Positions 141-37,076 of a stretch of DNA of 64,000 bases are shown here, in pieces; within the stretch, counting starts at the first letter, position 1, and each line of letters starts with the position of its first letter. Where the stretch lies: assembly GCA_017557425.1 (NCBI GenBank), contig JAFYYU010000001.1, positions 1-64,000 of the forward strand, given 5' to 3'. Position numbers and translations under genes: made by a program. The stretch comes from Muribaculaceae bacterium (GTDB lineage: Bacteria; Bacteroidota; Bacteroidia; Bacteroidales; Muribaculaceae). Under the pieces are notes generated by a model, which saw only the letters and a program-made list of their open reading frames with translations, was not told where the DNA came from and did not search any database.

Positions 141-161
141 TTTAGAGATTAGGGCTTAGAG
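141..161 (+). repeat. TTAG heptamer repeat, 3 units
   Basis: Three consecutive 7-mers: tttagag, attaggg, cttagag. Same design (TTAG core, period 7) as the arrays near 1917, 10446, 16082, 21620, 24220, 28971 and 37049. The shortest of the set, so weaker alone. Confidence 0.45.
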
Positions 162-320
162 GTTTCTGCCCTGCGAGGACTCATTTGATTCAAAAACACA
201 TCAAAATATATGGATCGTGCTGCGCACGAATAATTGAAACAAATCTAGAACAAATCAAGCTAATACTATTTAGTCCGTCATAAATCCAAGAGAAAGTGAG
301 CGCTTAGAGAAAATATTCGC

Positions 321-328
321 TACCTTTG
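321..328 (+). promoter_or_regulatory. Candidate -7 box for the gene at 384
   Basis: TACCTTTG matches the Bacteroidota -7 consensus TAnnTTTG. No clear TTTG lies 19-21 bp upstream, so the -33 element is weak. The predicted leader would be about 50 nt. Confidence 0.4.
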
Positions 329-383
329 CCACAGTAAAAAAGTGAATAAATTCCATTTTTGCCAGATATAATACTCAACCCTT

Positions 384-776
384 ATGAATAAGAAGAAATT
401 GTGGTTTGTCATCCTGATTGTATTGGGTATCATCGGAGGTTATCTTTGGATGAACGATACCCTCTATTCTAGCGGCAAAGACGTATCTCAACATCTGACC
501 ATAACGGCCGATATGGCCTATCAAGGAGTAAACAACTATTGCCATAGCGCTTATGACTGGAGCGTGGCAGAAGAGAATCCTTCCATGATGTCTTTAACGA
601 TGGGAGAAGAGACAGAAACGGAGTATCAAGTGATATTCCGAAGTTATACAGGCGCCATAGTAAATTTTTATGTCGATAAAACCACTGGCACCACAAGAAT
701 GGTTGAATATGTCCCAACGCTTGATGTCAAAAACGAAGCAGGAACCATCGACCTATTTGACTACATCGAGAAATAA
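384..776 (+). CDS. Small membrane-anchored protein of unknown function
   Basis: 130 residues. Lysine-rich N-terminus (MNKKK) is followed by one hydrophobic segment (about residues 6-23), which reads as a membrane anchor or uncleaved signal. The rest is a compact soluble domain with aromatic and acidic residues; no catalytic motif or family is recognised. A strong intrinsic terminator follows at 788-826, so it looks monocistronic. Two cysteines at most, no lipobox. Confidence 0.65.
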   Translation: MNKKKLWFVILIVLGIIGGYLWMNDTLYSSGKDVSQHLTITADMAYQGVNNYCHSAYDWSVAEENPSMMSLTMGEETETEYQVIFRSYTGAIVNFYVDKTTGTTRMVEYVPTLDVKNEAGTIDLFDYIEK

Positions 777-787
777 AATAATTAAAT

Positions 788-826
788 GACATCAAAAGAA
801 CCGTCCCTTTGATGTCTTTATTTTTC
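788..826 (+). terminator. Intrinsic terminator of the gene at 384
   Basis: Perfect 9-bp stem GACATCAAA (788-796) with TTTGATGTC (808-816), 11-nt loop, followed directly by the T-rich run TTTATTTTTC. It lies between two convergent genes. Confidence 0.85.
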
Positions 827-860
827 TAGAAAGATACTCTTGATTTCAAAGCCTTTTGTT

Positions 861-1913
861 TTAAAACAGTATCGCAAATCGGGAGAGATAGCGTTGGTAG
901 GCTTGCCAGGCGGGGTGGAGGGCGGTCGTGTCGTGGCCGGCATCGAAGAAGGTTGCTTGGCAGGTGGGCTTGAAGGGGGACCAGTTGCCGCAGATGATGC
1001 CGTCACGGGCGATGACGGGTTGGAAGATGCCGCTGTTGTTGTGGGCGCGGTGGGTGTGCTCGGGCGGGAGGACGATGTCGCGGCTCTTGTAGCCGATGAG
1101 GTATTCGTCGTAGGGCGGAATCAGGAGGTATTTGCCCTTGCGGAAACCTCGAGTGCGGCAATCATCCGTCAGGTAGAATTCCCTACCCTTCCATTTCACG
1201 GTGTGAATCCCGTTGCCCAACATGGCGATGCCCTTGCGGCAGTCGCTGATGTTCAGGCCCGACCACCAGACAAAATCCTCAAGCGTGGCGGGCTGATGGC
1301 TCTGGAAATACTTGCGGGTAAAGCACATCAGGGCCTCGTCTCGGTCTATCTTGCCTGAAGCTTTCACCTTGTTTGCAGTGAGCGCGTAGGTCGCTTTCAT
1401 GGGCAAGAGATCGCCGCTGCACAGGGTTCCCGACATTTCGGCCATGCGGATGTGGTAGGACAGCCGATGGTCATCCATGCGAATATCCCTCTCGGCCAAC
1501 GCCTGAACGAGGTCCTCTTTGGTCACGCTGCCCTTGTCGGCAGCCGTCCGGGCAAGGATGTCCCGAATGCTCATCAGTTCCTCGTCAGGAATACTAATTT
1601 TATTGCTGCTCATCCACCCCTTGGTGACAGCGATGGCTTTGGGGGCACACAGGCTGAGCCAAGTCCAGTAGTCATCGGCCGAGACCAGTTGCCAGGTGCC
1701 GCGCATCAGGTGCAGACGGATAATCCGCCCGCTGTCAAAGGCCTTCTTGAATGCCCGGGCCGACGGCTTGCGGGTGCGCATCTCCACCGCCCAGCGCATC
1801 ATGCGGTATTCCTGCGCCTGCATGGCGCCCATGTGGCTGACCACCTGGGCAGGGTCGCTGAACTGAGGCGCGACAAGCTGCTGGTTGAGAAGACGGATGG
1901 CTACGGGGTTCAT
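861..1913 (-). CDS. AlkZ-like winged-helix DNA glycosylase (HTH_42 family)
   Basis: 350 residues with the look of the HTH_42/AlkZ family (winged-helix DNA-binding domain-containing proteins), whose studied members remove alkylated bases or unhook interstrand crosslinks. The Q-x-Q motif that carries the catalytic glutamines in AlkZ is seen here as Q32-A-Q34 (MQAQEYRMMRWA). Downstream W/R-rich motifs (RGTWQLVSADDY, VWWSGL, PPYDEYLIGY) fit the family. It is the last gene of a minus-strand set starting at the nitroreductase at 3435, and is separated from the gene before it by a heptamer repeat. An AlkD-type glycosylase is transcribed divergently from the same promoter region. Whether it acts on crosslinks (AlkZ type) or simple lesions cannot be told. 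Confidence 0.8.
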   Translation of the reverse strand: MNPVAIRLLNQQLVAPQFSDPAQVVSHMGAMQAQEYRMMRWAVEMRTRKPSARAFKKAFDSGRIIRLHLMRGTWQLVSADDYWTWLSLCAPKAIAVTKGWMSSNKISIPDEELMSIRDILARTAADKGSVTKEDLVQALAERDIRMDDHRLSYHIRMAEMSGTLCSGDLLPMKATYALTANKVKASGKIDRDEALMCFTRKYFQSHQPATLEDFVWWSGLNISDCRKGIAMLGNGIHTVKWKGREFYLTDDCRTRGFRKGKYLLIPPYDEYLIGYKSRDIVLPPEHTHRAHNNSGIFQPVIARDGIICGNWSPFKPTCQATFFDAGHDTTALHPAWQAYQRYLSRFAILF

Positions 1914-1916
1914 GTG

Positions 1917-1958
1917 TTAGTTTCTAGTTTCTAGTCCCTAGTCCTTAGTTTTTAGTCG
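1917..1958 (+). repeat. TTAG heptamer repeat, 6 perfect-period units
   Basis: Six consecutive 7-mers: ttagttt, ctagttt, ctagtcc, ctagtcc, ttagttt, ttagtcg. It fills nearly the whole 49-bp gap between two minus-strand genes. Every 7-mer carries TAG; as 7 is not a multiple of 3, all three plus frames are stopped. Confidence 0.8.
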
Positions 1959-1962
1959 TTTT

Positions 1963-2445
1963 TCACCAGTAGCGGCCGACGCGTTGTTTGTAGTCGAGGT
2001 ATTCCTGGCCGAAGTCTTTTTCGAGGCGCTTTTCCTCGCTGCGGACCTGCAAAGTGAGCAGGATGACCTCGACGAGGAAGACGAGCAGCGGAAGGGCCGT
2101 CCATAGCCAAACGAGAACGCCTATGTCATAGAGGTAGATGCCCACGAGCATCGGGTTGCGGCACAGGCGGTACGGGCCCTCGGTCATCAGGCGACGGGTG
2201 CGGGGCGCTACTTCATGGTTATAGGCATCGAAGGGGTTACCCTTGCCGACAACACGTATATAGACGATACTGTAAATGCTGAGACCCAATCCACCGATGA
2301 TATACAGGGCAGCGACCATATAGCGGATGAGCGTGTCGGGCACATAGGGAAACGGCCGCCCCGACACCCACCACATGAGAGCCGGAATGCCGATGACAAA
2401 AATCAGCAGCCCCAAGAGATAACCGATGATATGCGATTTAAACAT
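1963..2445 (-). CDS. Isoprenylcysteine carboxyl methyltransferase-like membrane protein
   Basis: 160 residues with four hydrophobic segments (about 5-27, 42-65, 103-120, 122-138). The C-terminal half has the family signature: EGPYRLCRNPMLVG followed by EEKRLEKDFGQEYLDY and an aromatic end (VGRYW), as in ICMT/PEMT-type S-adenosylmethionine-dependent membrane methyltransferases, where the R-NP motif and the E-E-x-L helix build the SAM site. Bacterial members rarely have known substrates. It lies in the minus-strand set with nitroreductase and DUF4298. Confidence 0.8.
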   Translation of the reverse strand: MFKSHIIGYLLGLLIFVIGIPALMWWVSGRPFPYVPDTLIRYMVAALYIIGGLGLSIYSIVYIRVVGKGNPFDAYNHEVAPRTRRLMTEGPYRLCRNPMLVGIYLYDIGVLVWLWTALPLLVFLVEVILLTLQVRSEEKRLEKDFGQEYLDYKQRVGRYW

Positions 2446-2510
2446 TCTTTTGTTTTATTCTTTTGTTGGCCGTGACATAGTCACGGCACACTGAACCAGG
2501 AGGGAATGGA

Positions 2511-2810
2511 TTATTTACCGAATTTCCTTAAAAGGATTTTCAGTTCACGGCAGTCGGTGAGCAGGTTCCAGATGCCGTCCTCACTGAGCACACCGCGTTT
2601 CAGGTCTTTGGGTAAGAGTCCCATTTCGTCGTCGGCATAGTCTTGGCGCCATGCCTCGCTACCGTAATACTCGTCTAGCGCTGCAATGTCCTGCTGGGCC
2701 GTCTCATATTTGTCGAGGGCTGTGGCGAGGCGTTTCACGGCAGCCGTGGCACGGTCGAGGCGCCGCTCCATCTTGCGGATGCGGGCTATCTGTTCTTTAT
2801 TGTCACCCAT
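2511..2810 (-). CDS. DUF4298 domain-containing protein
   Basis: 99 residues, highly charged, mostly helical: a heptad-rich N-terminal half (about residues 5-45) that probably forms a coiled coil, then the conserved block DEYYGSEAWRQDYADDEMG and a helical C-terminus. This pattern matches DUF4298, small cytosolic proteins of unknown function. It starts 7 bp after the end of the nitroreductase gene and is probably cotranscribed with it. Confidence 0.75.
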   Translation of the reverse strand: MGDNKEQIARIRKMERRLDRATAAVKRLATALDKYETAQQDIAALDEYYGSEAWRQDYADDEMGLLPKDLKRGVLSEDGIWNLLTDCRELKILLRKFGK

Positions 2811-2817
2811 AATCGTG

Positions 2818-10218: not shown

Positions 10219-10449
10219 ATGAAAGATTTTCAATTATCCTTTGCCACGATCCTGAAGTACATCTCGATTGTCTTGATTGCATGCGGCGTGATCAGCTTTT
10301 TTGCCGGTTTAATTATGGGAAGCAGTACTATCTTCAGCAACTGTTTCGCCGACATCGCTTGCGGCGTGATGTTCTATGCATTGTCCATCGTGGTACATGC
10401 AGCAGCCATCTACATCAAGAAAAATACGCCTGAGAAACCTAAAGGTTAG
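10219..10449 (+). CDS. Small two-helix membrane protein
   Basis: 76 residues from the ATG at 10219 (MKDFQLSFA). An upstream in-frame start at 10186 lies in the promoter and is rejected. Two hydrophobic helices (about 10-33 and 42-62) with a short loop; charged C-terminus KKNTPEKPKG. No family recognised. Its stop codon TAG (10447-10449) is part of the first unit of the heptamer array, so its C-terminus is set by the repeat. Confidence 0.6.
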   Translation: MKDFQLSFATILKYISIVLIACGVISFFAGLIMGSSTIFSNCFADIACGVMFYALSIVVHAAAIYIKKNTPEKPKG

Positions 10450-10501
10450 GTTTTAGGCGTTAGGTTTTAGGCGTTAGGTTTTAGGCATTAGGTTTTAGGG
10501 G
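10446..10501 (+). repeat. TTAGG heptamer repeat, 8 units
   Basis: Eight units in strict period 7: ttaggtt, ttaggcg, ttaggtt, ttaggcg, ttaggtt, ttaggca, ttaggtt, ttagggg. Alternation of ttaggtt with ttaggc(g/a) suggests growth in 14-bp steps. Sits between convergent genes. Confidence 0.9.
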
Positions 10502-10558
10502 GCATCCGCTTTCCTGTTGCCTGTAATCTTGGCAGCTTGGCGTGAGACCTGGGACGCT

Positions 10559-11428
10559 TTATTTCAGGTAGCGGGAGAAGAATTGCCAGATTTCCTCACC
10601 GGTATCGATGTCGGCGGTGTGCCAGCTGTGGACGCCGCCCACGACCTCGTATAACCACACGTCGCAGCCTGTGGTGGGGCTGGTGTAGCGGTGCTTGATG
10701 ACGGGATGCCCTTCGTCACCCTGCAGACTCTTGACGCGCTCCACCTGCTCGTGGGTGCAACGGTTCTTGGCCACCCAGTAGCCGATGGCGACAGGCACGG
10801 GCAGATAGGCACCCCAGCCGCCCTGGTTTTCCATATCGCCCGTCCACTCCGACACGCGGTCCTCGGTGCCGTGGATTTCCATCAGGGGAATGGGATGCGG
10901 GGCGTCGAGCTGCTGATATATCCATGCCATCGTCAGGCCGGCAATAGGGGCCACGGCCTTGAAGGTCGACTGCTTGCTGTAGGCCATCAGGTAGCACATC
11001 TCACCGCCGTTGGACATCCCCGTGAGGAAGGTATTCTCACGGCTCAGTCGGTAACGCTTCTGGACATGACGCGCCATGCGGCACAAGGCCTTGACGTCAT
11101 CCACTTTCCACCCTTGCTGGAAGGGATAACCCACATTCCAACTGGGCTCTCCCTGGGGGTCTTTCAGTCCCTGAGGCAGGCAGACGGCAAAGCCGTGGCG
11201 GTCGGCAGCGGCAAGCATGGGATTCTCGCGCCAGATGCCCGCCCCATAGCCGTGCAGGATAAAAACCAGCGGGGCGCCGGCACTCAGACCGTCGGGCAGG
11301 TACACCGCCATGTGACGCATGTGGCCATCGACCTTGACCGAGTCATCGACAAAGGTCCCCGCGCGGCAAGGCAGAAAGCACAGCGGCAGCAGCAGAGCCG
11401 CAAGAGCCGATAAGAGATGACGGTTCAT
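10559..11428 (-). CDS. CE1/PHB-depolymerase-like esterase, exported
   Basis: 289 residues. Signal peptide (about 1-23), then an alpha/beta-hydrolase of the esterase-PHB/LpqC type: FILHGYGAG (oxyanion loop), FLTGMSNGGEMCYLMA with the nucleophile in GMSNGG, EIHGTEDRV (Asp region), GGVHSWHT (catalytic His near residue 267). Related enzymes cut feruloyl, acetyl or polyhydroxyalkanoate esters. Its ATG overlaps the stop of the upstream permease gene by 4 bp (11425-11428), which predicts translational coupling, though the functional link of a uracil permease with an esterase is unclear. Confidence 0.85.
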   Translation of the reverse strand: MNRHLLSALAALLLPLCFLPCRAGTFVDDSVKVDGHMRHMAVYLPDGLSAGAPLVFILHGYGAGIWRENPMLAAADRHGFAVCLPQGLKDPQGEPSWNVGYPFQQGWKVDDVKALCRMARHVQKRYRLSRENTFLTGMSNGGEMCYLMAYSKQSTFKAVAPIAGLTMAWIYQQLDAPHPIPLMEIHGTEDRVSEWTGDMENQGGWGAYLPVPVAIGYWVAKNRCTHEQVERVKSLQGDEGHPVIKHRYTSPTTGCDVWLYEVVGGVHSWHTADIDTGEEIWQFFSRYLK

Positions 11429-16081: not shown

Positions 16082-16117
16082 AACTAATAACTAAAGACTA
16101 AAAGACTAAAGACTAAA
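16082..16117 (-). repeat. TTAG heptamer repeat, 5 units, reverse orientation
   Basis: Plus-strand units aactaat, aactaaa, gactaaaa, gactaaa, gactaaa (one has 8 bp). On the minus strand they read TTTAGTC/TTAGTT. It fills the gap between namZ and the symporter gene, which are read in the same direction. Confidence 0.8.
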
Positions 16118-17580: not shown

Positions 17581-17616
17581 ATCTAGATATCCTAGATGAT
17601 CTTGAGTGTCTAGATA
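17581..17616. promoter_or_regulatory. Three CTAGAT sites around the -33 element of the WYL gene
   Basis: ATCTAGAT (17581-17588), CTAGAT (17592-17597) and TCTAGATA (17609-17616). The first is fully palindromic, the last two flank the TTG at 17602-17604. Spacing and position fit an operator, perhaps of the WYL regulator on its own promoter. Confidence 0.5.
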
Positions 17617-17631
17617 AGACTTCTAACTTTA
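17602..17631 (+). promoter_or_regulatory. Promoter of the WYL regulator gene
   Basis: TTG (17602-17604), 19-bp spacer, TAACTTTA (17624-17631), ATG 7 nt after the box, so a leaderless mRNA is predicted. Confidence 0.6.
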
Positions 17632-20045: not shown

Positions 20046-21637
20046 AGCGCTGCGTCTTCTCAATATTGCTGCTGTTGACCTTAAGCCTGACCGCTGTTGC
20101 CCAGGTAGGTGAGTTGCCTCGCTCCACGCCTGAGGACGAGGGTGTAAGCACCATGTTGCTAAGGAGTTTCTGCAACGAATTGACGGCATTGCCCAATGTG
20201 GACGTCCATCACTTGATGGTGCTGCGCCACGGCAAGGTCATCGGCGAGCTGCATGCCGCTCCCTACCAAGCCACCGATGTACACACGCTATACAGCGCCA
20301 GCAAGACGGTTACGGGGCTTGCTGTGGGGCTTGCCGTTGAAGACGGGCTGCTCACTGTCGATGACAAGGTATCCAAATACCTGCGCGACAAAATGCCAGC
20401 CACGTTGTCGCCCGCGTTGGACAGCCTTACCGTGCGCGATGTGCTCATGATGGCGGCAGGCAGGGAAGAGGACTTGAGTATCTTTGAGGGTGACCAGGAT
20501 TGGCTGAGTACTTGGTTTGCCAGCGAGTTCCAGGGTGTGGGCAAAGTGTTCAACTACGACTCGATGTGTAGCCACGTGCTGGCAATGATTGTCACACGGC
20601 TCACGGGCAAGCCGCTGCTGGAGTATGTGCGGGAACGCATTTTTACGCCTTTGCACATCACACAATGCGACTGGGAACTGGCGCCCGACAGCGTCGAAAT
20701 CGGTGCCTGGGGCCTGCGTCTGCATGCCGAAAGTCAAGCCAAACTGGGCCAATTTATGCTGCAAGAAGGTCAGTGGAACGGTCAGCAGCTCATCAGCGCC
20801 CAGTGGATTCACGACATGACGCAGCGCCTGATCAGCACTCAGGAAAACGACAAAAATCCCAAACTCTCATGGGGAGAAAAAATCAAACGCTTCCTGCAAC
20901 GCGTGTGGCACGAGATACGGTCCTGGTTCACGGGCTACAATGTTGACGATTACTACTTGGGCTATGGCTATCAGACCAAGTCCATCCAGCATCCGCGTGC
21001 CGAGTGTTACTTTGCTGCGGGCTATGGAGGACAACTCATCTATGTAGTGCCCAAACTGGATATGGTCGTCGTCATCAACGGCCGTGCCGCCAACTATGGA
21101 GACGAACTGAACACACTCTACTATAAACTGGTAGAGCCGATGCTTGACGAGGAGGAATTGTTGAAAGCAGCACCTTCACAACTGGCTATTGACATGCCAC
21201 AAGGTGATGCCACCCACCCGCTGGAACAGCGTCTGTTGGGCACCACCATTGTGCTCGAGGACAATCTGCTAGGATTGCAATCCATCGAGGTAAACAAGCA
21301 GGGAAATGACCGCCTTTTTACGATGATTGACAATCGCGGTACGAAGCATGCCGTTGCGGCCTGGGGCGAGTGGCGCATCACTACCAGCGATGAGCGCCCC
21401 ATCTACATTGTCGAATGCCGTGAGCAATTGGTGGGCACACCGCGGCCCTTTACCAGTGCTGCGGCCTATGCCTGGCAAGGCGACACGCTTGCCATGCGCC
21501 TCGACTGGATTGATGGAGGCGATAACCGCCGGCTGAAGATCATCGCCCATGACGACAAGGCTACCGTCATCGCTTGTGATAACTTTGACCCGTTGCTGAC
21601 CGACACGATTATTGGGGAGATAGGCGTTAGGCATTAG
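20042..21637 (+). CDS. Serine hydrolase, beta-lactamase/class C fold (paralogue 2)
   Basis: 531 residues. Signal peptide (about 1-20), S85-A-S-K88 (YSASKTVTGLAVG), FNYDSMCSHVLAM (Tyr motif), with an insertion of about 25 residues (near 260-290) compared with paralogue 1. ATGA overlap with the gene before it. The stop codon (TAG 21635-21637) lies in a heptamer-repeat unit, so the last residues (GVRH) are encoded by the repeat, not by conserved protein. It is followed 15 bp later by XerD. Confidence 0.85.
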   Translation: MKRCVFSILLLLTLSLTAVAQVGELPRSTPEDEGVSTMLLRSFCNELTALPNVDVHHLMVLRHGKVIGELHAAPYQATDVHTLYSASKTVTGLAVGLAVEDGLLTVDDKVSKYLRDKMPATLSPALDSLTVRDVLMMAAGREEDLSIFEGDQDWLSTWFASEFQGVGKVFNYDSMCSHVLAMIVTRLTGKPLLEYVRERIFTPLHITQCDWELAPDSVEIGAWGLRLHAESQAKLGQFMLQEGQWNGQQLISAQWIHDMTQRLISTQENDKNPKLSWGEKIKRFLQRVWHEIRSWFTGYNVDDYYLGYGYQTKSIQHPRAECYFAAGYGGQLIYVVPKLDMVVVINGRAANYGDELNTLYYKLVEPMLDEEELLKAAPSQLAIDMPQGDATHPLEQRLLGTTIVLEDNLLGLQSIEVNKQGNDRLFTMIDNRGTKHAVAAWGEWRITTSDERPIYIVECREQLVGTPRPFTSAAAYAWQGDTLAMRLDWIDGGDNRRLKIIAHDDKATVIACDNFDPLLTDTIIGEIGVRH

Positions 21638-21653
21638 GTTTTAGAATTAGGGA
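21620..21653 (+). repeat. TTAG heptamer repeat at hydrolase/xerD border
   Basis: Units ataggcg, ttaggca, ttaggtt, ttagaa (6 bp), ttaggga. It overlaps the 3' end of the hydrolase gene and the first base of the xerD ATG. Confidence 0.75.
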
Positions 21654-22592: not shown

Positions 22593-24206
22593 ATGAAACG
22601 ATTTTTACTGGTTGCAGTAACAATGATGGCCATAGCCGGAACGGCACAAGCCAATAGCTGGTGGAACAACTACCAACCCGACAACAAAAACGTGAAACTC
22701 ACGTCCACCAATCTGCCCATCGTGTGGATTGAAGTAAACGGCAACATCATCGACCGTGACGAGCGCATCACGGCCCGCATGAAGATTATCCACAACGGCG
22801 AAGGCCAGCTTAACTACGCCGACACCGTGGCCCATCCCGGTCAGACGATAGACTATGAGGGCTACGTGGCGTTGCGCTACCGTGGCAGTTCATCCTACAG
22901 CATGAGCGACAAGAAGCCTTATTCATTCCGCCCATTGGACAAACCGCTAGAGGAAGGCGGTGAAAAGAAGAAAGTCAACATTCTGGGCATGGGCAAGGAC
23001 AACAACTGGGCCCTGCTGGCACCCTATGCCGACAAGAGCATGATGCGCGACCTGCTAGCCTTTGAGGTATCCCGGCCATGGATGGAATATACGCCCAAGG
23101 GCCGCTATTGCGAGCTGTTCCTGGATGGCATGTACTATGGCGTTTATATCCTCACCGAGGTCGTTTCCAAGGGCAAACACCGCATCAACCTGTCCGACCC
23201 CGGCGAGAGCGGCGACGAACTCACCGGCGGCTACATCATGGAGGTGGACCGCTACGACTATGAGGGCACCTACACTTCCAAATATCACCCCGTGAGCAAC
23301 ACGGGAGTGCGTTACACGAATTATTACATCTATTTCCAGTATGAGTCGCCCGATTATGCGGATTTGACACAAGATCAGATAAGTTACATCACGGGACGCA
23401 TCGACCAGATGGAGGCTGCATTGTGGAATTACCGCCCCACTGGTGCCACCACTTATCGGGAATACCTTGACATGCAGAACTTCATCGATTACCAGATTGC
23501 CATGGAGCTGGGACATAACGTGGACGGTTACCGCCTGAGCGGCAAGTTCTTTAAACGCCGCGACAGCGAGGACCCGCGCTTCAAGATGGTGGTGTGGGAC
23601 AACAACCTGTCTTACGGCAACGCCGACTATTATGATGCCTGGCGCACCGACACGTGGATGTACAAGAACAACAACATCCTCTATAGCCAGGGTGATTCCC
23701 AACTGATACCCTTCTGGTGGTACAAACTCAACACTGACCCCGAATTCACAGCCATGTTTAAGGCACGTTGGGCACAGTACCGACGCGGCAACCTGCGCGA
23801 GGACCGCATCATGGCGACCGTGGACTCGATGGCAACTGTTCTTACATCCCATGGCGCCGAGAGTCGCAACAGCAAGGCATGGCCGCGATGGGGGCAGTAC
23901 GTGTGGCCCAACTATTACATTGCCAACAACTTTACCGAGGAAGTGGCCTGGCTTAAGCAATGGCTCCACGACCGCATCGCATGGATGGACCAACAGCTGG
24001 GATTTGACCCCAATGCCATCCAGCGCGGCGATGTAAACGGCGACGGCGATGTAAACATTGCCGATGTGACGGCTCTCATCGACTATCTGCTCAGCAGCAA
24101 TGCCGATACCATCGAACTCGACGCCACCGACTGCAATCAGGACGGAAGCATCAACATCAGCGACGTTACGACACTGATTGACTACCTGTTGAGCGGCAGT
24201 TGGTGA
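22593..24206 (+). CDS. CotH-kinase family protein with C-terminal dockerin-like pair (second)
   Basis: 537 residues. Signal peptide (about 1-20), N-terminal beta domain, CotH-kinase domain (about 100-430): WALLAPYADKSMMRDLLAFE, GRYCELFLDGMYYGVYILTE, KMVVWDNNLSYGNADYY. The usual second acid of the W-D-x-D motif is asparagine here (WDNN), so the activity may be altered. The C-terminus is a dockerin duplicate (GDVNGDGDVNIADVTALIDY and NQDGSINISDVTTLIDYLLS). Starts 1 bp after the xerD stop. Homologous in design to the gene at 12732-14465 but only distantly in sequence. Confidence 0.86.
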   Translation: MKRFLLVAVTMMAIAGTAQANSWWNNYQPDNKNVKLTSTNLPIVWIEVNGNIIDRDERITARMKIIHNGEGQLNYADTVAHPGQTIDYEGYVALRYRGSSSYSMSDKKPYSFRPLDKPLEEGGEKKKVNILGMGKDNNWALLAPYADKSMMRDLLAFEVSRPWMEYTPKGRYCELFLDGMYYGVYILTEVVSKGKHRINLSDPGESGDELTGGYIMEVDRYDYEGTYTSKYHPVSNTGVRYTNYYIYFQYESPDYADLTQDQISYITGRIDQMEAALWNYRPTGATTYREYLDMQNFIDYQIAMELGHNVDGYRLSGKFFKRRDSEDPRFKMVVWDNNLSYGNADYYDAWRTDTWMYKNNNILYSQGDSQLIPFWWYKLNTDPEFTAMFKARWAQYRRGNLREDRIMATVDSMATVLTSHGAESRNSKAWPRWGQYVWPNYYIANNFTEEVAWLKQWLHDRIAWMDQQLGFDPNAIQRGDVNGDGDVNIADVTALIDYLLSSNADTIELDATDCNQDGSINISDVTTLIDYLLSGSW

Positions 24207-24219
24207 GTTGAGGCATTAT

Positions 24220-24267
24220 TAGGCTTTAGGTTTTAGGCTTTAGGCTTTAGGTTTTAGGTTTTAGGTC
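24220..24267 (+). repeat. TTAGG heptamer repeat, 7 units
   Basis: Units ttaggct, ttaggtt, ttaggc(t), ttaggct, ttaggtt, ttaggtt, ttaggtc; one unit is shortened by a base. Same sequence class as the 10446 array. Confidence 0.85.
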
Positions 24268-24284: not shown

Positions 24285-24315
24285 GCACCTGCAGGGATTT
24301 CTTCCTTGCAGGTGC
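24285..24315 (+). terminator. Hairpin after the second CotH gene
   Basis: 9-bp perfect stem GCACCTGCA (24285-24293) and TGCAGGTGC (24307-24315), extended inwards by GGGA/TCCT with one G-U. No T-run follows, so termination is likely but not certain. The core CACCTGC / GCAGGTG recurs in the 29006-29050 hairpin. Confidence 0.5.
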
Positions 24316-24586: not shown

Positions 24587-27500
24587 ATGAAAAAAATCCT
24601 AACAACACTACTACTGGCGTTGGTGGCGATAGCTGTCAACGCGTTTGAGCAAGGCGACTTTGAGTACTATATCTTGACTGACTCGACTGTACGTCTGGAA
24701 GGCTTCAAGAGCAGCTACACGGGCTCGCCCACAACGCTGACGATTCCAGGCTATACCTTCAATGCCAGTACACAGAAGTACTATCGGGTGACTCACATCG
24801 GCACAAGTGCCTTCTACAACAAGACCACCTTGACCCAAGTTGAGATTCGGCCTGGCGTGGAAACCATTTTGTCTTATGCCTTCAATAAATGCACATCGCT
24901 GAAAACGGTATATCTGCCCAGCAGCATCAAGAGCATCGGTGATTATGTTTTCTACCAAGATCCCATCACCGTCATCAACTGCGCTGCCGAGACAATGCCC
25001 ACCATCAGCTCTAACGCATTCTATCAGATGGGCACAGTGAGCGGCTCACGCTACTGGAACTGCGCCACCCCCGACGGCAAAACAGCCGCCGATGCGGTAA
25101 CCCTGATTTGCAACAACTTCAATCGCGGGTGGACCCACACGGCAGCCGACTTCCACAACCATGTGATAGGCAAAAGCAATGAGGGCACGCTGTGTGATGT
25201 GTACATGAACGTTGTCACGCCCGTCAAGGCCTCCAACCCCTCTGCATATTATGGCAAGGTCAAATTGTTGGGCGCCACCCCTCGCAGCAGCAACACCAGC
25301 AAGACGCTGAAATTAGGCTACAACGAGTCTTTCTCTATGAACGCTGACTACTACTACGTCACTGCTATCGACAAGTCGTTCCGCTATCGTGCCACCGACC
25401 TCAAGGTTTTGGACTTAAGTCAGACGAGCAAGATCGAGGAGATTGAAGACAATGCTCTGAATGGCTGCACGGCGCTGACCACAGCCAATATTACCGCCAC
25501 CAAAGTCGGCAACTATGCCTTCTATAACTGCACGAGCTTGAACTCGGTGACGCTGAGCGAGCGTGTGCAGACATTGGGCACATTAAGTTTTGCCAACACC
25601 GCGGTGTCCACTGTCAACATCCCCGCATCGTTATCGACTTACGGCAACGGTGCCTTTGCCATGTGCCCCAACTTGACGGACTTTTCTGTTTCATCCTCTA
25701 ACAACTACTTCTCCACTTCCTCTTTTCAATATGTCACAGCATTGTATAACAAGGATAGTAGTAACCGCACGCTCCTGCAGTTCCCGGCTGGCGCATCTTA
25801 CGTTGGCTTCGTTAGCGGCTTGAAACTAAAGGCGATCAATCCTTATGCGTTTGCGGGTGTACAGAGGGCGATCGAGATTCCTTATGGTGTGACCAGCATC
25901 GGTGCCTACGCATTCTATAATGCCAAATGCTCTTATATTCTGATTCCTAGTTCGGTAACGTCATTCCATAGCACGACATTCAGTGCGATGAAAACCAACC
26001 ATCTGTATTTCAACAAGACGAGCATTCCATCAACCCTCACTTACAGTTACTCGTTCAGCAGCGTGACAAACACCTCGGGAGGAACGTCCATTCAGTTGAG
26101 CGTACCCTACGGGTGCGCCAACAAATACGCTACCACCTCGCCCTGGTCTTCCACATTTACGACCATCAACGAGAAGGCCTACGACGCCCTTTTATACAAC
26201 AGCAATGGAGAGAGCCTAGGCATCTTTGTCACTATGACCAGCACCAGCAGTTATACCGACCCGAAGGTGTCATCCACCGCCACTTATAGTGGTCAATGCA
26301 AGATTGTCAAGGGCACTATGGGCACCAAGACCGGCTATCTCAACCTCCCCGTTTATTGGTCAGAAAGAAATACCGACAAGGTATATCTGATCACCGAGGT
26401 AGAGCGCGAGGTGTTCCGTGACCAGACGGGTATCACCAAGGTACAGGGCGGTACGGGTATCAAGAAAATCGGAGCCCTATCGTTCGCTGGCCTGACGGGC
26501 TGTACCCAGGGCTTTGACATCCCTTATCCTGTGGAATTTGGCGACTCGTCCCTGTTCAACTGCTGGACGCCGACCATCACCCTGGGCGACCGCTTGGAGC
26601 GCATCGGCAATGATGCCTTCCGCCAGAGTGCGGTTCGTCAAGTCATCATGCCACCCAGTGTGACCTCTATCGGCTCGCGCATCGTAGCAGGTGTCCACCA
26701 GCTTGACTCTATCAAGCTCTCGCCTAACATCACCGAGATTCCCAACTGTGGATTGGGCTGGTGTAGTGCCCGCTGGATCGTTATCCCCTATGGTGTGAAG
26801 AAAATCGGTAGCCAAGCCTTCTTCAGCGATGAATATGGCGCTGGCTTGGATGAGCCCGTGCGTGAGAATGTTGTAGTCATCCCCAGTTCGGTGACCACAA
26901 TTGCTTCTGACGCGTTTGCACTGGCCCGCCACCTCGATGCCATCTTCCTGAATGTAAACTACGGTGTGTTTACCTCGACAAAGAGCGACTGGCTACGCCG
27001 CCTTGCCCCGTCGGCCACAAACGATTATGACTGGAGCGGCCACAAACTGTATGTGCCCGCAGGGCAACTGGAGCAGTACCGCAACGACTCGGGCATCAAG
27101 CAGTGCTGGAGCCGAGGCGATATCCAGTGCGGCGCATTCGACTTCACGACAGGTAATGACTTCTGGAGCACGATGTACCGCATGACGGTGGTCGATGCCA
27201 CCAACAAGAAGGCCAAGTACGTCTATAACTGGGGCACCGGCAGCACGTCCATCACCGTGGCCAACACCAAGACCGACCACAACAGCGGCATCACCTACAC
27301 CATGGTGGAGATTGGCGACAGCTGCTGGGTGAACCGACCCGCCGTGACCACAGTTTCCTTCCCGAGCACGAGCAACATCACCAAAATTGCCCCCTACGCC
27401 TTCAAGGACTGCACAGGCCTGACCGGAGAGATCTCGGTACCCGCTACCGTGAGCGAAATCGGCCAGTACTCTTTCTGGAACTGTAACAAATTGACCAGTT

Positions 27501-28960
27501 TGTTCCTGAACCGCACCAGCACGACGACCATCGCCGATTATGCCTGGAACAGTTATGACGACTACACCTATGATCGCATCAAGCTATACATGCCGCTAAG
27601 CCAGTACTGGAACTTGTATGGACAGACTAAAGACTGGCTGCCCACCGGATTCACCTATAACTACCTGTTGCCTTACATCAAGCCCACTACCGAGTGGTCG
27701 GCCATTTCGGTACCCAGCGAGGATGCCGTCGGTCTTCCCGCCTCTGGCGATTTCTATATCGCTACTTCCTATAATGCAACCACTCAGGCGATCGGCAAGG
27801 AGAAGTTGGAGAACAACATGGGCATCAAGGGATTTGAGGGTATGCTGTTTAGGGGTACTGTCGGAACCGTGTATCGCTTCAGGCAAACCTCCGAGATCAA
27901 TAGCAGCGCTCCCTATAATGTAGCTTACTATAGCCCGTCAGTCAACTATCTGGAAGGTGCCCATCCCACTTCTTATACTTCCAATACTCAGACAGTGAGA
28001 GACAATTCCACTTACGACAATTATTATTTCGTCCCCGCTGACAATAACTTCACCAAGATTACCTCAACTAAGGCCATGTATGCCGGCGAGGCCTATCTGC
28101 AACTGACAGATGCAGTGACAGGTGGAGCTACGACGGTATATAGCGAAAGCACCAACGTCTACGACCTCTGGATCGCCGGTGTACAAGTGTCGGACCGCAA
28201 CTGCTACGACTTGACGGTTATCGACGGCGTGAGTGGAACTCTTGTATACTATTCTCCGTCAAGCAACATCCTTACAGTGAAAGATGGCACTATTGAACCT
28301 TCGTCCGACGCCCCGGGTATCCGCAGCTCAATACCTGGCCTGAAGATCAATTTCATAGGTACCAGCAGCATTAAGTCTAAGGGCTCATACCCTGCTGTAT
28401 CGATTGAATCCTATGCCACCATGTACGGTACAGGAACGGCTACTTTCTTGAGTACCGCCAATATCGGATTACGCGTGAGCAACAGTAATACGACACTGAC
28501 CATCAAAGACGGTGTTCAGTTGAGTGCGAGCGGACAGACCTATGGTGTACGTGGAACAAGCAGTGGCAAGATCTATATTACCGGTGAGAATACTAAGCTC
28601 ACTGCCTTGGGCATGACGGCAAGCTACTCGGCCTGTGTAACCACACTGGGCACCGGACTGGCCATCACTGAGCCTGCGGGTGCGAAGTTCAATTCGTCGG
28701 GAACCGTGGTATCATCCACTGGTAGCACCATTGCGGGCACTAATGTAGTCATCAGCAAGCAGACCGCAACAGTTACGCGTGGCGATGTGAATGGCGACGG
28801 CAGCGTGAACATCAGTGACGTGACTACACTGATCGACTACCTGCTCAGCGGCAACGCTTCAGGCATCAATTTGAGCGCAGCCGACTGCAACCAGGATAAC
28901 GCTGTGAACATCAGCGATGTGACTGGCCTCATCGACTACCTGTTGAGCGGACACTGGTAA
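24587..28960 (+). CDS. Giant BspA-type leucine-rich repeat protein with dockerin-like pair
   Basis: 1457 residues. Signal peptide (about 1-19), then many LRR_5-type repeats (about 60-1030) with the pattern I-G-x-Y/S-A-F-x-x-C-x-x-L-x-x-V-x-L-P-x-S/V-x-x-I (for example IGTSAFYNKTTLTQVEI and IGAYAFYNAKC), interrupted by non-LRR stretches. The last 400 residues hold a beta-rich domain. The end is a dockerin duplicate (GDVNGDGSVNISDVTTLIDY and NQDNAVNISDVTGLIDYLLS) ending SGHW. BspA-like proteins bind host or matrix proteins at the cell surface; that is family knowledge. Followed by a strong hairpin. Confidence 0.88.
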   Translation: MKKILTTLLLALVAIAVNAFEQGDFEYYILTDSTVRLEGFKSSYTGSPTTLTIPGYTFNASTQKYYRVTHIGTSAFYNKTTLTQVEIRPGVETILSYAFNKCTSLKTVYLPSSIKSIGDYVFYQDPITVINCAAETMPTISSNAFYQMGTVSGSRYWNCATPDGKTAADAVTLICNNFNRGWTHTAADFHNHVIGKSNEGTLCDVYMNVVTPVKASNPSAYYGKVKLLGATPRSSNTSKTLKLGYNESFSMNADYYYVTAIDKSFRYRATDLKVLDLSQTSKIEEIEDNALNGCTALTTANITATKVGNYAFYNCTSLNSVTLSERVQTLGTLSFANTAVSTVNIPASLSTYGNGAFAMCPNLTDFSVSSSNNYFSTSSFQYVTALYNKDSSNRTLLQFPAGASYVGFVSGLKLKAINPYAFAGVQRAIEIPYGVTSIGAYAFYNAKCSYILIPSSVTSFHSTTFSAMKTNHLYFNKTSIPSTLTYSYSFSSVTNTSGGTSIQLSVPYGCANKYATTSPWSSTFTTINEKAYDALLYNSNGESLGIFVTMTSTSSYTDPKVSSTATYSGQCKIVKGTMGTKTGYLNLPVYWSERNTDKVYLITEVEREVFRDQTGITKVQGGTGIKKIGALSFAGLTGCTQGFDIPYPVEFGDSSLFNCWTPTITLGDRLERIGNDAFRQSAVRQVIMPPSVTSIGSRIVAGVHQLDSIKLSPNITEIPNCGLGWCSARWIVIPYGVKKIGSQAFFSDEYGAGLDEPVRENVVVIPSSVTTIASDAFALARHLDAIFLNVNYGVFTSTKSDWLRRLAPSATNDYDWSGHKLYVPAGQLEQYRNDSGIKQCWSRGDIQCGAFDFTTGNDFWSTMYRMTVVDATNKKAKYVYNWGTGSTSITVANTKTDHNSGITYTMVEIGDSCWVNRPAVTTVSFPSTSNITKIAPYAFKDCTGLTGEISVPATVSEIGQYSFWNCNKLTSLFLNRTSTTTIADYAWNSYDDYTYDRIKLYMPLSQYWNLYGQTKDWLPTGFTYNYLLPYIKPTTEWSAISVPSEDAVGLPASGDFYIATSYNATTQAIGKEKLENNMGIKGFEGMLFRGTVGTVYRFRQTSEINSSAPYNVAYYSPSVNYLEGAHPTSYTSNTQTVRDNSTYDNYYFVPADNNFTKITSTKAMYAGEAYLQLTDAVTGGATTVYSESTNVYDLWIAGVQVSDRNCYDLTVIDGVSGTLVYYSPSSNILTVKDGTIEPSSDAPGIRSSIPGLKINFIGTSSIKSKGSYPAVSIESYATMYGTGTATFLSTANIGLRVSNSNTTLTIKDGVQLSASGQTYGVRGTSSGKIYITGENTKLTALGMTASYSACVTTLGTGLAITEPAGAKFNSSGTVVSSTGSTIAGTNVVISKQTATVTRGDVNGDGSVNISDVTTLIDYLLSGNASGINLSAADCNQDNAVNISDVTGLIDYLLSGHW

Positions 28961-28970: not shown

Positions 28971-29005
28971 TTAGAGTTTAGGCATCAGCCTTTAACTTTT
29001 AACTG
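28971..29005 (+). repeat. TTAG heptamer repeat, 5 units
   Basis: Units ttagagt, ttaggca, tcagcct (degenerate), ttaactt, ttaactg. Lies between the LRR stop and the terminator hairpin. Confidence 0.6.
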
Positions 29006-34115: not shown

Positions 34116-34120
34116 AGCGA

Positions 34121-34681: not shown

Positions 34682-34730
34682 TGTCTTGTGTTTTATTGTT
34701 TTTGATGTTGATTTGTTGTTTTATTGGTCA

Positions 34731-34762
34731 CGAAAGTAGTGTTTTTGCCACAACCCTGCAAA
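34731..34762 (-). promoter_or_regulatory. Promoter of frr
   Basis: Minus strand TTTG (34762-34759), 20-bp spacer, TACTTTCG (34738-34731), one mismatch from the -7 consensus. Confidence 0.6.
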
Positions 34763-34842
34763 TATTTTGCCAAAATTTGTGCAAACCGAATGCAAACAAG
34801 CTTGCTTGATTTGCTGAGGTGCAGCCAAATTTATCCAAAAAA

Positions 34843-35796
34843 TCAAAAATTGCCCTTTGCCGACACGTTCTCACCGTTGAATTCACGAACGATGTAATCC
34901 GGCCGGTTCTTGGTCTCGTTGTAAATGCGGCCGATATACTCCCCGATGATGCCCAACGACAGCAACTGGATGCCACCCAGGAACAGGATGAGCACAACCA
35001 GCGTGGGATATCCCTGTACAGGGTCGCCCCAGATGAGCGCCTTGATGAACACGTAGATCATATAGATAAAGGCACACAGCGAAACAACAAAGCCGACAAT
35101 GGTGGAAATGCGCAACGGTGCCGTAGTGAACGACGTGATGCCGTCGAGAGCAAACGAGAACAAACGGCGGTAACTCCATGATGACGTTCCTGCAACACGG
35201 TCGCCCTGCATGAATTCCACCTCTTTCTTCTTGAATCCGATCCAACTGTACATCCCCTTGGTGTAACGCTCGCTCTCCCGCATCTTCTTCAGAGCGTCAA
35301 CGCACTTGCGGTCCAGCAGACGGAAATCGCCCACATCCTGCAAGATTTCAAAGCGCGAAGCGCGTTGCAGCAGTTTATAGAACATCTGGGACAGGCGCTT
35401 GCGCAACCAGCTCTCCCGGCCCCGAGACTTGCGTTTGGCATACACATCCTCATAACCCTGCTCCCACCATTTGATCATTTCGGGGATGAGCGTGGGCGGG
35501 TGCTGCATGTCGGCGTCCAAGATAACCATGCAGTCACCGGTCACATAGTCAAACCCGGCCAGCATGGCCGCTTCCTTGCCAAAGTTGCGCGACAGGTCCA
35601 CATAGTTGACGCGGCGGTCCTGCTGACGCAGGCGCTGCAGTTCCATGAGGGTACCGTCGGTGCTGCCGTCATTGACGAACATGAGTTCCCAGTCATATGC
35701 AGAATTGGCGTCCATGAGTTTGACCAGCTCGGGATAGAGCAACGGCAGGGACTTCTCTTCGTTATAGCACGGAATCAGGATTGATATCTTTTTCAT
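34843..35796 (-). CDS. Family 2 glycosyltransferase (dolichol-phosphate-mannose synthase-like)
   Basis: 317 residues. GT-A domain: ILIPCYNEEKSLP, VNDGSTDGT, SRNFGKEAAMLAGFDYVTGD, DADMQHPP (D-x-D metal site), then QDVGDFRLLDRK and SERYTKGMY; two C-terminal membrane helices (about 232-255 and 266-290). This is the plan of GtrB/ArnC-type enzymes that load a sugar onto undecaprenyl phosphate. It probably supplies lipid-linked sugar for surface glycans; which sugar is unknown. Follows the M16 gene after 26 bp. Confidence 0.9.
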   Translation of the reverse strand: MKKISILIPCYNEEKSLPLLYPELVKLMDANSAYDWELMFVNDGSTDGTLMELQRLRQQDRRVNYVDLSRNFGKEAAMLAGFDYVTGDCMVILDADMQHPPTLIPEMIKWWEQGYEDVYAKRKSRGRESWLRKRLSQMFYKLLQRASRFEILQDVGDFRLLDRKCVDALKKMRESERYTKGMYSWIGFKKKEVEFMQGDRVAGTSSWSYRRLFSFALDGITSFTTAPLRISTIVGFVVSLCAFIYMIYVFIKALIWGDPVQGYPTLVVLILFLGGIQLLSLGIIGEYIGRIYNETKNRPDYIVREFNGENVSAKGNF

Positions 35797-35822
35797 AATC
35801 TTGTTAAGCGGTTACATTCAAT

Positions 35823-37040
35823 TTATTGGAACGTGAGGGATGAGAGGCAGTCACTCTTGAGATAGGCCGCTGCTTGGGCAATCTGGTCGGGCGTGACAGC
35901 CCGGATGCGCGAGATGGTATCGTCGATGGTTGCCACCTCACCATGATAGAGCAAACCACGGCCAGCGCGCATCGCAATGAACTCGGTGCTGTCGGCTGCC
36001 ACGACCAGTTGGCCGCAATATTGCCTCTTGTAGGCCTCCAACCGACGCTCGGGCAACAAGTCCTGGCTCAGGCGGTTGGTGATGCGCTCAATCACATGCA
36101 GGCTGGACCGCACGTCGTCGTGGTCACAGCCCAGGTAGATTTCGAGCCATCCGCAGTCGCTCAGGAGCGTCAGGGTGGACTCGACGGTATAGACGTAGCC
36201 GCGGCGTTCCCGCAGCTCCACGTTCAACAACGAGTTCATCCCCGGACCGCCCAGGATATTGTTCAACAGCATCAGGGCATATCGCAGGGGATGATTCAAA
36301 TCAGGCACTCGGGCGCCCACAATGGTATGGGCCTGATGGGTGCCTATCTGGATAGTCTGGCGGAACGGGGTATTCATTGAGGGCACCAAACGGTGACGGG
36401 GAGTTATGGCATGGCTCATGCCGCCAAAGTACTTCTCGGCCAAGCGGAACACCCGCTCGGGGCGCTCGGGTCCTACCGAGAAGAAAGCCATGTTGCCGGG
36501 CACATAAAGTGTCTTGAGATAACGCATACAATCCTCCTGGGTGAGGTTTTCCAAGTCCTCTTTCTTACCCAGGATATTGTGCCCTAATTCACTACCCGCA
36601 AACAGCAGGTCCTCGAAGTCGTCATAGACGGCATCGCTGGGGGTGTCACGGTAACTGGCGGCCTCCTCAAGCACCACATCGCGCTCGCGGTCCAGTTCCT
36701 CCTGCGGGAATACCGACCACTGCACCAGATCGGCCAGCAGGTCGATGGCCCGCGCCAGATGCTGGTGCGGGAAAACGGAGTAGAGCATGGTGCCCTCCTT
36801 GGTGGTATAGGCGTTCAACTCGCCACCCACACGCTCCATGCGGTTCAGGATGTGCCAGGCACGCCTGTGTTTTGTGCCTTTGAAGATGGTATGTTCCACG
36901 AAGTGGGCCAGGCCATGATGCCCGTCCTGCTCGTCGCGGCTACCGGCGTTGATGGCCAGACCGCACCATGCCACTTGGTTGGTAGTGGTAATGTGCACCA
37001 GTCGCAGGCCGTTGGGCAATGTATGATAGTAGGTTGTCAC
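35823..37040 (-). CDS. M16 family zinc protease
   Basis: 405 residues, the length of one full M16 subunit. The inverted zinc motif HFVEH lies at residues 46-50 (HxxEH), and the third ligand glutamate should be in the helix around RERDVVLEEAASYRD. No signal peptide, so it may be cytosolic or use another route; its relatives include processing peptidases and bacterial PqqL/YmxG types. It lies between the S24 repressor and the glycosyltransferase genes. Confidence 0.9.
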   Translation of the reverse strand: MTTYYHTLPNGLRLVHITTTNQVAWCGLAINAGSRDEQDGHHGLAHFVEHTIFKGTKHRRAWHILNRMERVGGELNAYTTKEGTMLYSVFPHQHLARAIDLLADLVQWSVFPQEELDRERDVVLEEAASYRDTPSDAVYDDFEDLLFAGSELGHNILGKKEDLENLTQEDCMRYLKTLYVPGNMAFFSVGPERPERVFRLAEKYFGGMSHAITPRHRLVPSMNTPFRQTIQIGTHQAHTIVGARVPDLNHPLRYALMLLNNILGGPGMNSLLNVELRERRGYVYTVESTLTLLSDCGWLEIYLGCDHDDVRSSLHVIERITNRLSQDLLPERRLEAYKRQYCGQLVVAADSTEFIAMRAGRGLLYHGEVATIDDTISRIRAVTPDQIAQAAAYLKSDCLSSLTFQ

Positions 37041-37048
37041 TATTTCTG

Positions 37049-37076
37049 TTTAGAGTTTAGAGTTTAATGTTTAAAG
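37049..37076 (+). repeat. TTTAG heptamer repeat, 4 units
   Basis: Units tttagag, tttagag, tttaatg, tttaaag. It fills the gap between the repressor and M16 genes and contains the stop codon of the repressor (TAA, 37073-37071). Confidence 0.7.

What the first reader, a model, noticed from the sequence alone, without database searches (positions are those of the whole stretch)
141..37076. Heptamer arrays with a TTAG core at eight gene borders
Seen directly: 141-161, 1917-1958, 10446-10501, 16082-16117, 21620-21653, 24220-24267, 28971-29005 and 37049-37076 each hold 3-8 units of exactly 7 bp (very few 6 or 8-mers), and units vary between arrays (TTAGTTT, TTAGGTT, TTTAGAG) more than within one. 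All lie between genes, none within a long ORF. As 7 is not divisible by 3, every array puts a TAG stop in all three frames of one strand. I do not know a described function. Possibilities: a protein-binding array, a slippage product kept as a reading-frame stop, or a termination or decoy site.
Basis: partly seen in the sequence, partly recalled or inferred. Interest (0 to 1): 0.78.

Follow-up and report, generated by a model that had tools for sequence, protein, structure and literature searches.

The report
Oriented heptamer arrays at gene borders
Short runs of a repeating seven-letter DNA word sit between the genes of a rumen-type bacterium and its relatives, facing one way just before a gene's start and usually the other way just after a gene's end, and they may serve as quickly changing spacers that keep the start of the next gene's message open for translation.

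Summary
In detail: period-7 arrays are far above chance and lie between genes (20 intergenic, 0 genic lag-7 runs in a 462 kb sample of this genome). Six of the eight reported arrays are clear; 141-161 and 28971-29005 are weak. The genome is an unnamed Bacteroidales, xerD 86-93% identical to ruminant-type MAGs.

Beyond the report: (1) arrays within 15 nt of a downstream start read CTAA on the mRNA; arrays near only the upstream stop read TTAG. Two genomes fetched afterwards agree, a third from another family agrees for stops; a mixed outside set does not show it. (2) At one operon junction 20 of 21 genomes carry an array, of differing units. (3) Close relatives differ by 7 or 14 nt. (4) Start-side arrays leave the initiation region weakly folded; reversing that stretch costs 6.8 kcal/mol, against 0.85 without arrays.

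Best reading: slippage-made spacers filtered by translation initiation in a phylum without Shine-Dalgarno sites. TAACTGA and GGGNATC heptamers are published, the latter with the same polarity. New variant of a known kind; here polarity holds without G runs.

The parts
141..161 (+). weak array, 3 units (TTTAGAG ATTAGGG CTTAGAG); next to an inverted repeat TGCTCGCTGACGCGAGCA at 122-139
   Evidence: (score 6)
1918..1956 (-). start-side array, mRNA sense ACTAAAA/ACTAGGG; 6 nt after the stop of gene 1963-2445(-), 4 nt before the start of 861-1913(-)
10446..10499 (+). TTAGGTT/TTAGGCG array followed by GGCATCCGC at 10501; after the stop of 10559-11428(-) on the other side. A doubtful 77-aa ORF 10219-10449(+) ends in it, so 'convergent' in my tables depends on that ORF
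16082..16117 (+). start-side array ACTAAAG, just before the sodium/solute symporter gene 16122-17567; a run at this junction in 20 of 21 genomes
21620..21653 (+). TTAGG array holding the stop codon of 20042-21637 and reaching the xerD start at 21653
24219..24266 (+). stop-side array TTAGGCT/TTAGGTT, 12 nt after the stop of 22593-24206
28971..29005 (+). weak: two TTAG units then two TTTAACT units, about 10 nt after the stop of 24587-28960
   Evidence: score 7
37048..37076 (-). start-side array, mRNA sense TTAAACATTAAACTCTAAACTC; 7 nt before the start of 35823-37040(-), overlapping the stop of the ORF ending at 37071(-)

Best explanation
Shown by computation: the arrays are non-coding spacers between genes, built of 7-bp units; lengths differ between close relatives by whole units; orientation depends on the nearest gene end; start-side arrays are G-poor and leave the initiation region weakly folded. 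Inferred: replication slippage, perhaps with recombination between arrays, keeps producing heptad arrays in gaps between genes, and selection through the mRNA decides what stays. Bacteroidota begin translation without Shine-Dalgarno pairing and need an unfolded stretch before the start codon. In the CTAA orientation (A-rich, G-poor) an array provides it and is kept right before starts; the TTAG orientation does not, and is kept after stops, where an initiation-like stretch would be useless or would invite false starts (this stop-side step is the weakest). The YTAR core of this genus also closes reading frames, so an array that invades a gene's end ends it at once.
For: Polarity in co-directional gaps, start-adjacent CTAA:TTAG and stop-only TTAG:CTAA: discovery set 38:3 (1 unclear) and 19:1 (1 unclear); genomes fetched afterwards G034+G020 16:1 (1 unclear) and 20:2 (1 unclear); G346, another family, 3:2 (4 unclear) and 14:0 (3 unclear). 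Folding -45..+25: mean -3.71 kcal/mol with start-adjacent CTAA arrays (n 47), -9.13 with the array reversed in place, -10.37 in 303 array-free operon starts; control: reversing -35..-6 costs 6.79 in 50 array regions and 0.85 in 293 array-free ones. Position kept, units replaced: J1 20 of 21, J2 14 of 21, xerD 12 of 23. Whole-unit indels: 5 of 5 indels of 2 nt or more in the gaps aligning at 80% identity or better. Prevotella bryantii: SD has no effect, a -5.2 kcal/mol structure cuts protein five-fold (PMC3155529, abstract); Flavobacterium johnsoniae: initiation tuned by structure and by A upstream (PMC6847099, abstract and one section).
Against: No expression data. Array-free starts are also translated, so arrays are not required. 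Arrays near neither end are more often CTAA (26 of 38 clear ones in own, genus, G034, G020 and G346; 18 of the 26 within 60 nt of the start), which sits badly with the idea that CTAA is unwelcome away from starts. Polarity by nearest border is looser on the stop side (51 TTAG, 29 CTAA; 24 of the 29 are single arrays). In the outside set (58 loci, G005, G010) polarity by TAG/CTA is not significant (start 11:2, 8 unclear; stop 5:5, 3 unclear; p 0.17), and strand skew is absent in G212+G136. Xanthomonas repeats show the same polarity (PMC4692102), so lack of SD cannot be the whole cause. Enriched start-side 4-mers may reflect base composition only. Gene starts come from a home-made caller.
Confidence: 0.5

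Rival explanations
1. Purely mutational: 7-nt polymerase slippage fills DNA that is free of constraint; arrays are neutral and polarity only reflects avoidance of harm (no G-rich stretch before a start), with no benefit of having an array.
For: Whole-unit indels; heptamers are over-represented in many bacteria and slippage has been proposed (as told in PMC4692102 and PMC4679880); J1 sequence over 210 pairs is on average less alike (0.41, ungapped) than 4-fold sites (0.59).
Against: J1 keeps an array in 20 of 21 genomes; some pairs keep J1 better than 4-fold sites (L057/L069 0.97 against 0.76, L051/L070 0.88 against 0.57); stop-side and convergent polarity has no obvious harm to avoid; a shared YTAR core is not expected from slippage alone.
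Confidence: 0.3
2. Six-frame stop barrier: YTAR at a 7-nt period is selected because it closes every frame on both strands at gene borders.
For: YTAR in 119 of 152 arrays (column-permuted mean 23.4, maximum 36); all six frames closed in 103 of 152 (22.5); also 9 of 13 period-8 and 16 of 46 period-9 arrays (1.1 and 6.1); TAG in 26 of 37 stops inside arrays.
Against: Only 2 of 50 arrays outside have YTAR; period 9 cannot close all frames; antisense stops have no known use; TCACT units before starts lack sense stops (L062 2650); does not predict polarity.
Confidence: 0.12
3. Binding array for an RNA- or DNA-binding protein that reads the 7-nt register.
For: Regular period; MacGregor 2015 suggests S1, cold-shock or CsrA-type binders for TAACTGA (abstract).
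Against: Unit letters differ between species at the same junction; RRM_1 found in 0 of 61 genomes of the genus. Other binders were not tested.
Confidence: 0.12
4. Arms of a mobile inverted-repeat element.
For: Opposite arrays in one gap come TTAG first in 28 of 29 and 9 of 9 in G346; in G034, GGCATCVGC lies within 40 bp of an array in 12 of 19 intergenic cases.
Against: Single arrays are common; in this genome GGCATCVGC is not enriched between genes (8 in 76 kb against 42 in 385 kb of coding) and only 2 of 8 are near arrays. Target duplications and empty sites were not tested systematically.
Confidence: 0.08
5. mRNA hairpin between a stop-side and a start-side array couples translation of neighbouring genes.
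For: Fixed order of arms; own genome 3 pairs, similarity 0.467 against 0.246 (80 of 500 permutations as high).
Against: Within-gap arm similarity does not exceed between-gap elsewhere (genus 0.286 against 0.303; G034 0.320 against 0.578; G020 0.400 against 0.359, 3 pairs); array starts are less folded, not more.
Confidence: 0.06
6. G-quadruplexes, as proposed for GGGNATC heptamers.
For: Same polarity as GGGNATC; 39 of 152 arrays have at least four GG runs on one strand.
Against: 1 of 152 arrays has four GGG runs and 61 have no GG on either strand; arrays without any GG keep the polarity: start 29 CTAA, 0 TTAG, 2 unclear; stop 7 TTAG, 2 CTAA, 2 unclear.
Confidence: 0.03

Closest known systems
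GGGNATC / GGGGA(C/T)T heptamers of Xanthomonas and Nostoc (Rehm et al. 2015, PMC4692102; abstract, Introduction, 'Repeats in intergenic regions' and Discussion read)
   Same: Period 7; mostly non-coding; favoured between aligned genes, rare between divergent ones; G-rich strand antisense upstream of starts and sense after stops; same gene borders in related species with varying length.
   Different: GGG-bearing units with a preference for four, shown to form quadruplexes in vitro; here 151 of 152 arrays lack four GGG runs, units change family between species at one junction, and the hosts are Bacteroidota.
TAACTGA heptamers of Beggiatoaceae, Cyanobacteria and a few Bacteroidetes (MacGregor 2015, PMC4679880; abstract and four sections read)
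   Same: Intergenic heptads just upstream of starts in one orientation, sense stop codons, 7-nt indels between close strains.
   Different: One unit there, many YTAR-type units here; a stop-side partner with opposite orientation is the rule here. TAACTGA-like arrays do occur in outside loci L091 and L099.
Heptanucleotide simple sequence repeats of bacteria in general (Mrazek and co-workers; known to me here only as told in PMC4679880 and PMC4692102)
   Same: Excess of unit length 7.
   Different: Polarity, positional conservation and start-side folding are added here.
Unstructured initiation regions of Bacteroidota (PMC3155529 abstract; PMC6847099 abstract and one section)
   Same: G-poor, weakly folded leader before the start.
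   Different: What I read of those papers does not mention heptad arrays as its source.

Membership tests
Bacterial heptanucleotide simple sequence repeats | Tandem 7-nt units, mostly outside genes, above chance | tested here: met
   20 intergenic, 0 genic in 462 kb; Markov 0.4 against 21
Bacterial heptanucleotide simple sequence repeats | Copy number varies in whole units between relatives | tested here: met
   7- and 14-nt indels
GGGNATC quadruplex heptamers | Four G runs per array able to form a quadruplex | tested here: not met
   1 of 152 with four GGG runs, 39 of 152 with four GG runs, 61 of 152 with no GG
GGGNATC quadruplex heptamers | G-rich strand antisense before starts, sense after stops | tested here: met
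   own genus G-C skew -0.129 against +0.186
TAACTGA repeats | Unit TAACTGA | tested here: not met
   window and own-genome units are TTAG/CTAA types
TAACTGA repeats | Forward orientation within a few nt upstream of a start | tested here: met
   start-side arrays CTAA on the mRNA 38:3 and 16:1
REP/MITE-like inverted-repeat element | Discrete element with matching arms | tested here: inconclusive
   arm order fixed but arm similarity not above between-gap level in three of four sets
REP/MITE-like inverted-repeat element | Target-site duplication, empty sites | not tested
   no systematic comparison made
RRM_1-protein binding sites | An RRM_1 protein in the genome | tested here: not met
   0 of 61 genomes of the genus; 2 of 14 controls ring

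The most novel reading that the evidence does not exclude
Gene-end-oriented heptad arrays are one unnamed class spread over several phyla (Bacteroidota here; Xanthomonas, Nostoc and Beggiatoaceae in print) in which the letters of the unit hardly matter but the 7-nt period and the orientation do: an exchangeable translation-initiation spacer on the start side and an inert or frame-closing spacer on the stop side, renewed by slippage and overwritten by other unit families within a genus.
Probability: 0.33. Interest if true: 0.8.

Novelty: new variant of a known kind. Interest (0 to 1): 0.57.

Why it matters
Excess heptamer repeats between bacterial genes have been reported and left without a settled function. 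A system in which the unit changes from species to species while position and orientation stay is a natural experiment: it separates sequence recognition and G-quadruplexes from orientation effects, and points to translation initiation in organisms without Shine-Dalgarno sites as a filter. It can be tested with one reporter and one orientation flip. It also warns that gene ends in these genomes are partly set by repeats.

Tried and rejected
Hairpin between opposite arrays: order fits, complementarity does not in three of four sets. RRM_1 binding of UUAG (the motif is recalled from eukaryotic RRM proteins; no call supports it): no RRM_1 in 61 genomes. GGCATCCGC as the universal centre of an element: suggestive in G034, not in this genome. 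TTTTCAGGCAA as a universal spacer: copies with at most one mismatch beside arrays only at window 16069, C3 102040, L051 and L052. A weak period 7 in all initiation regions: lag 7 does not stand out from neighbouring lags once arrays are removed. Array end 5 nt before the start as a rule: clear in the xerD loci, loose in G034 and G020. YTAR as a rule for all Bacteroidales heptads: fails outside. Strong homogenisation of units within a genome: only modest (mean unit overlap within genomes 0.115, between 0.047; but own genome 0.071 within against 0.099 with G034). The reversed pattern as a neutral control across the order: not valid, it is hit up to 196 times in one genome.

Limits: gene calls come from a home-made hexamer caller with approximate starts. 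Arrays more than half covered by a called gene were counted as genic and left out of position tables; arrays without a called gene on both sides were dropped; arrays with equal TAG/TGAG and CTA/CTCA counts are given as unclear. Thresholds differ between tables (score 11; 10). The 22 xerD loci are taken as the same genus from xerD identity only, and come from one gene neighbourhood, so their arrays are not independent.
Full report
What the window is. 64 kb of contig 1 (101,847 bp) of a 2.58 Mb, 24-contig assembly. Its XerD (21653-22591; TIGR02225 above cut-off) is 86-93% identical to 22 loci whose records are filed as Muribaculaceae, Prevotellaceae, Porphyromonadaceae or Bacteroidales, several with rumen or other ruminant sources in the title. 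The genome itself is unnamed.

Is it there. All eight stretches are present; six are clearly periodic, two weak. In 461,847 bp of this genome (window, rest of contig 1, first 180 kb of contigs 3 and 9; about 83% coding) lag-7 runs are 20 intergenic and 0 genic, and three TAG at 7-nt spacing occur in 21 intergenic and 2 genic clusters, against 0.4 in Markov versions of the intergenic DNA. Other samples, intergenic/genic at lag 7: 52/2 (22 xerD loci), 43/1 (G034), 37/0 (G020), 31/3 (58 outside loci), 11/1 (G005), 8/3 (G010), 38/2 (G346), 12/1 (G212), 13/6 (G136) (N runs excluded).

How widespread. With TTAGNNTTTAGNNTTTAG, 28 of 37 genomes of the genus score (up to 289 hits in G034) and 5 of 24 others; over the order 86 of 295 score. 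The built-in reversed pattern is also rich in many of those genomes, because it is itself a heptad; so TTAG is one family among several and the period is the common element. Other units seen: AATGCAC, TAACTGA-like, GAGTTAC, ATTATGC and AAATCNN.

Unit composition. In own, xerD loci, G034 and G020, 119 of 152 arrays carry YTAR in most units; permuting the seven columns gives 23.4 on average and 36 at most. All six frames close in 103 of 152 against 22.5. YTAR comprises the four tetramers with a stop on each strand (my enumeration). Nine of 13 period-8 and 16 of 46 period-9 arrays also carry it (permuted 1.1 and 6.1). In the outside set only 2 of 50 non-N arrays do. Sharing of units within a genome is modest (0.115 within, 0.047 between).

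Polarity. Co-directional gaps, discovery set (own genome and 22 xerD loci): arrays within 15 nt of the downstream start read CTAA on the mRNA 38 to 3 (1 unclear); arrays near only the upstream stop read TTAG 19 to 1 (1 unclear). Fetched afterwards, G034 and G020 give 16 to 1 (1 unclear) and 20 to 2 (1 unclear); G346, another family, gives 3 to 2 (4 unclear) and 14 to 0 (3 unclear); the outside set gives 11 to 2 (8 unclear) and 5 to 5 (3 unclear), p 0.17. Arrays near neither end: CTAA 26, TTAG 12, unclear 8 in own, genus, G034, G020 and G346; 18 of the 26 end within 60 nt of the start. By nearest border alone, start 49 CTAA to 3 TTAG, stop 51 TTAG to 29 CTAA. Where a gap holds both, TTAG comes first in 28 of 29 and 9 of 9 in G346. 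Convergent gaps: TTAG outward 9, 1 unclear in the genus sets; 5 outward, 2 inward, 2 unclear elsewhere (one of the nine, window 10446, rests on a doubtful small ORF). Divergent gaps are undecided (10 outward, 5 inward, 7 unclear). G-C skew of the mRNA strand is -0.129 at starts and +0.186 at stops (p 4e-11); pooled outside sets p 3e-4, no difference in G212+G136. In own, G034 and G020, arrays occur in 63 of 535 co-directional, 7 of 99 convergent and 4 of 113 divergent gaps of at least 20 nt.

Position without sequence. The window's 16082 array lies before a symporter gene. Of 21 genomes in which that start could be placed (this one included), 20 have a lag-7 run within 70 nt upstream; lags 5, 6, 8, 9, 10 and 11 do so 0-2 times. 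The units differ: CTAAACT, CTAACTC, AACTATT, ACTAAAA, ACTTACA. The next junction scores in 14 of 21 and xerD in 12 of 23; two junctions where the window's genes nearly touch or overlap score 1 and 0 of 23; the one after xerD, which has no gap in the window and a promoter-like stretch in several relatives (motif recalled), scores 1 of 21. At xerD junctions without arrays the stop and the start often seem to overlap (L054, L061, L070; read, reading frames not checked).

Turnover. Orthologous gaps of close relatives show clean 7- and 14-nt indels: 5 of 5 indels of 2 nt or more in gaps aligning at 80% identity or better, 9 of 20 over all array gaps above 50%. In some pairs J1 is more alike than 4-fold sites (0.97 against 0.76; 0.88 against 0.57), yet over all 210 pairs it is less alike (0.41 ungapped against 0.59): retained in some lineages, overwritten in others.

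What start-side arrays do to the mRNA. The -45..+25 region has a mean folding energy of -3.71 kcal/mol with start-adjacent CTAA arrays (47), -9.13 with the array reversed in place, and -10.37 in 303 array-free operon starts. Control: reversing -35..-6 costs 6.79 in 50 array regions and 0.85 in 293 without; G content 8.5% against 17.3%. Array-free starts also favour ACTA, CTAA, TAAC and AACT about two-fold over mid-gap DNA in the genus sets, and TAAC, CTAA and CACT outside; these are not among the most over-represented 4-mers once base composition is allowed for. In Prevotella bryantii the SD has no effect and a modest structure cuts protein five-fold (PMC3155529, abstract). This makes translation initiation the best-supported filter on the start side; it is inference from folding and literature, not a measurement.

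Stop side. Arrays run into gene ends: of 37 stops lying in arrays 26 are TAG, against 181 of 1,147 overall. This explains neither the strand choice there nor the convergent gaps. My proposal, that the initiation-like CTAA strand is unwelcome on an mRNA away from a true start, is untested, and the CTAA arrays near neither end speak partly against it.

Relation to known work. Rehm et al. 2015 (PMC4692102) describe GGGNATC heptamers with the same polarity and shared gene borders in related species, stress quadruplexes and could assign no function. MacGregor 2015 (PMC4679880) describes TAACTGA heptads just upstream of starts, including in a few Bacteroidetes, and notes the stop codons. Here 151 of 152 arrays lack four GGG runs, and arrays without any GG keep the polarity (starts 29 CTAA, 0 TTAG, 2 unclear; stops 7 TTAG, 2 CTAA, 2 unclear), so orientation rather than quadruplex formation looks like the shared property. 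Searches of the held open-licence library with the terms listed no paper on TTAG heptads in Bacteroidales; listings were capped, and subscription journals are mostly not held.

Noticed in passing
L131 5340, L135 3514, L139 16636, L140 12427 and 16012, L142 13452; window 10501-10509: In G034 many bipartite gaps read (TTAGGYT)n - GCGGATGCC (or GCTGATGCC) - (AACTAAC or ACTAGAA)n on the mRNA; GGCATCCGC also joins other short repeat modules in L053 and L057.
   Followed up: partly
window 62886-62908 and 62928-62950; L053 10953-11284; L057 12536-12749: Period-8 arrays CGCTAAGG / CTTAGCGC, in inverted pairs in the window; their core is also YTAR.
   Followed up: partly
window about 17590-17625; L068 2302 and 7946; own contig 9 about 177323: Period-9 arrays TCTAGATNN, and CCTTAAGGA in L060 and L064, at borders where relatives carry heptads.
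   Followed up: partly
window 24285-24315: Strong inverted repeat GCACCTGCAGGG...CTTGCAGGTGC after the 24219 array, possibly a terminator or a repeat element.
   Followed up: no
61 genomes of the genus: No RRM_1 protein found, although Bacteroides and Synechococcus controls ring; Bacteroides RbpB-type regulators seem to be missing here.
   Followed up: no
L057 12406-12749, L069 12910, L145 about 19236: Longer modular repeats (AACAACAGGAACAACT..., TGCTCGCTGCGCTCGCAG hairpins) stacked between genes, some ending in GGCATCCGC.
   Followed up: no
L091 9075, L099 5545 and 6090, L117 3915: AACTGATAACTGA-type arrays, close to the published TAACTGA repeats, in outside Bacteroidales loci.
   Followed up: no
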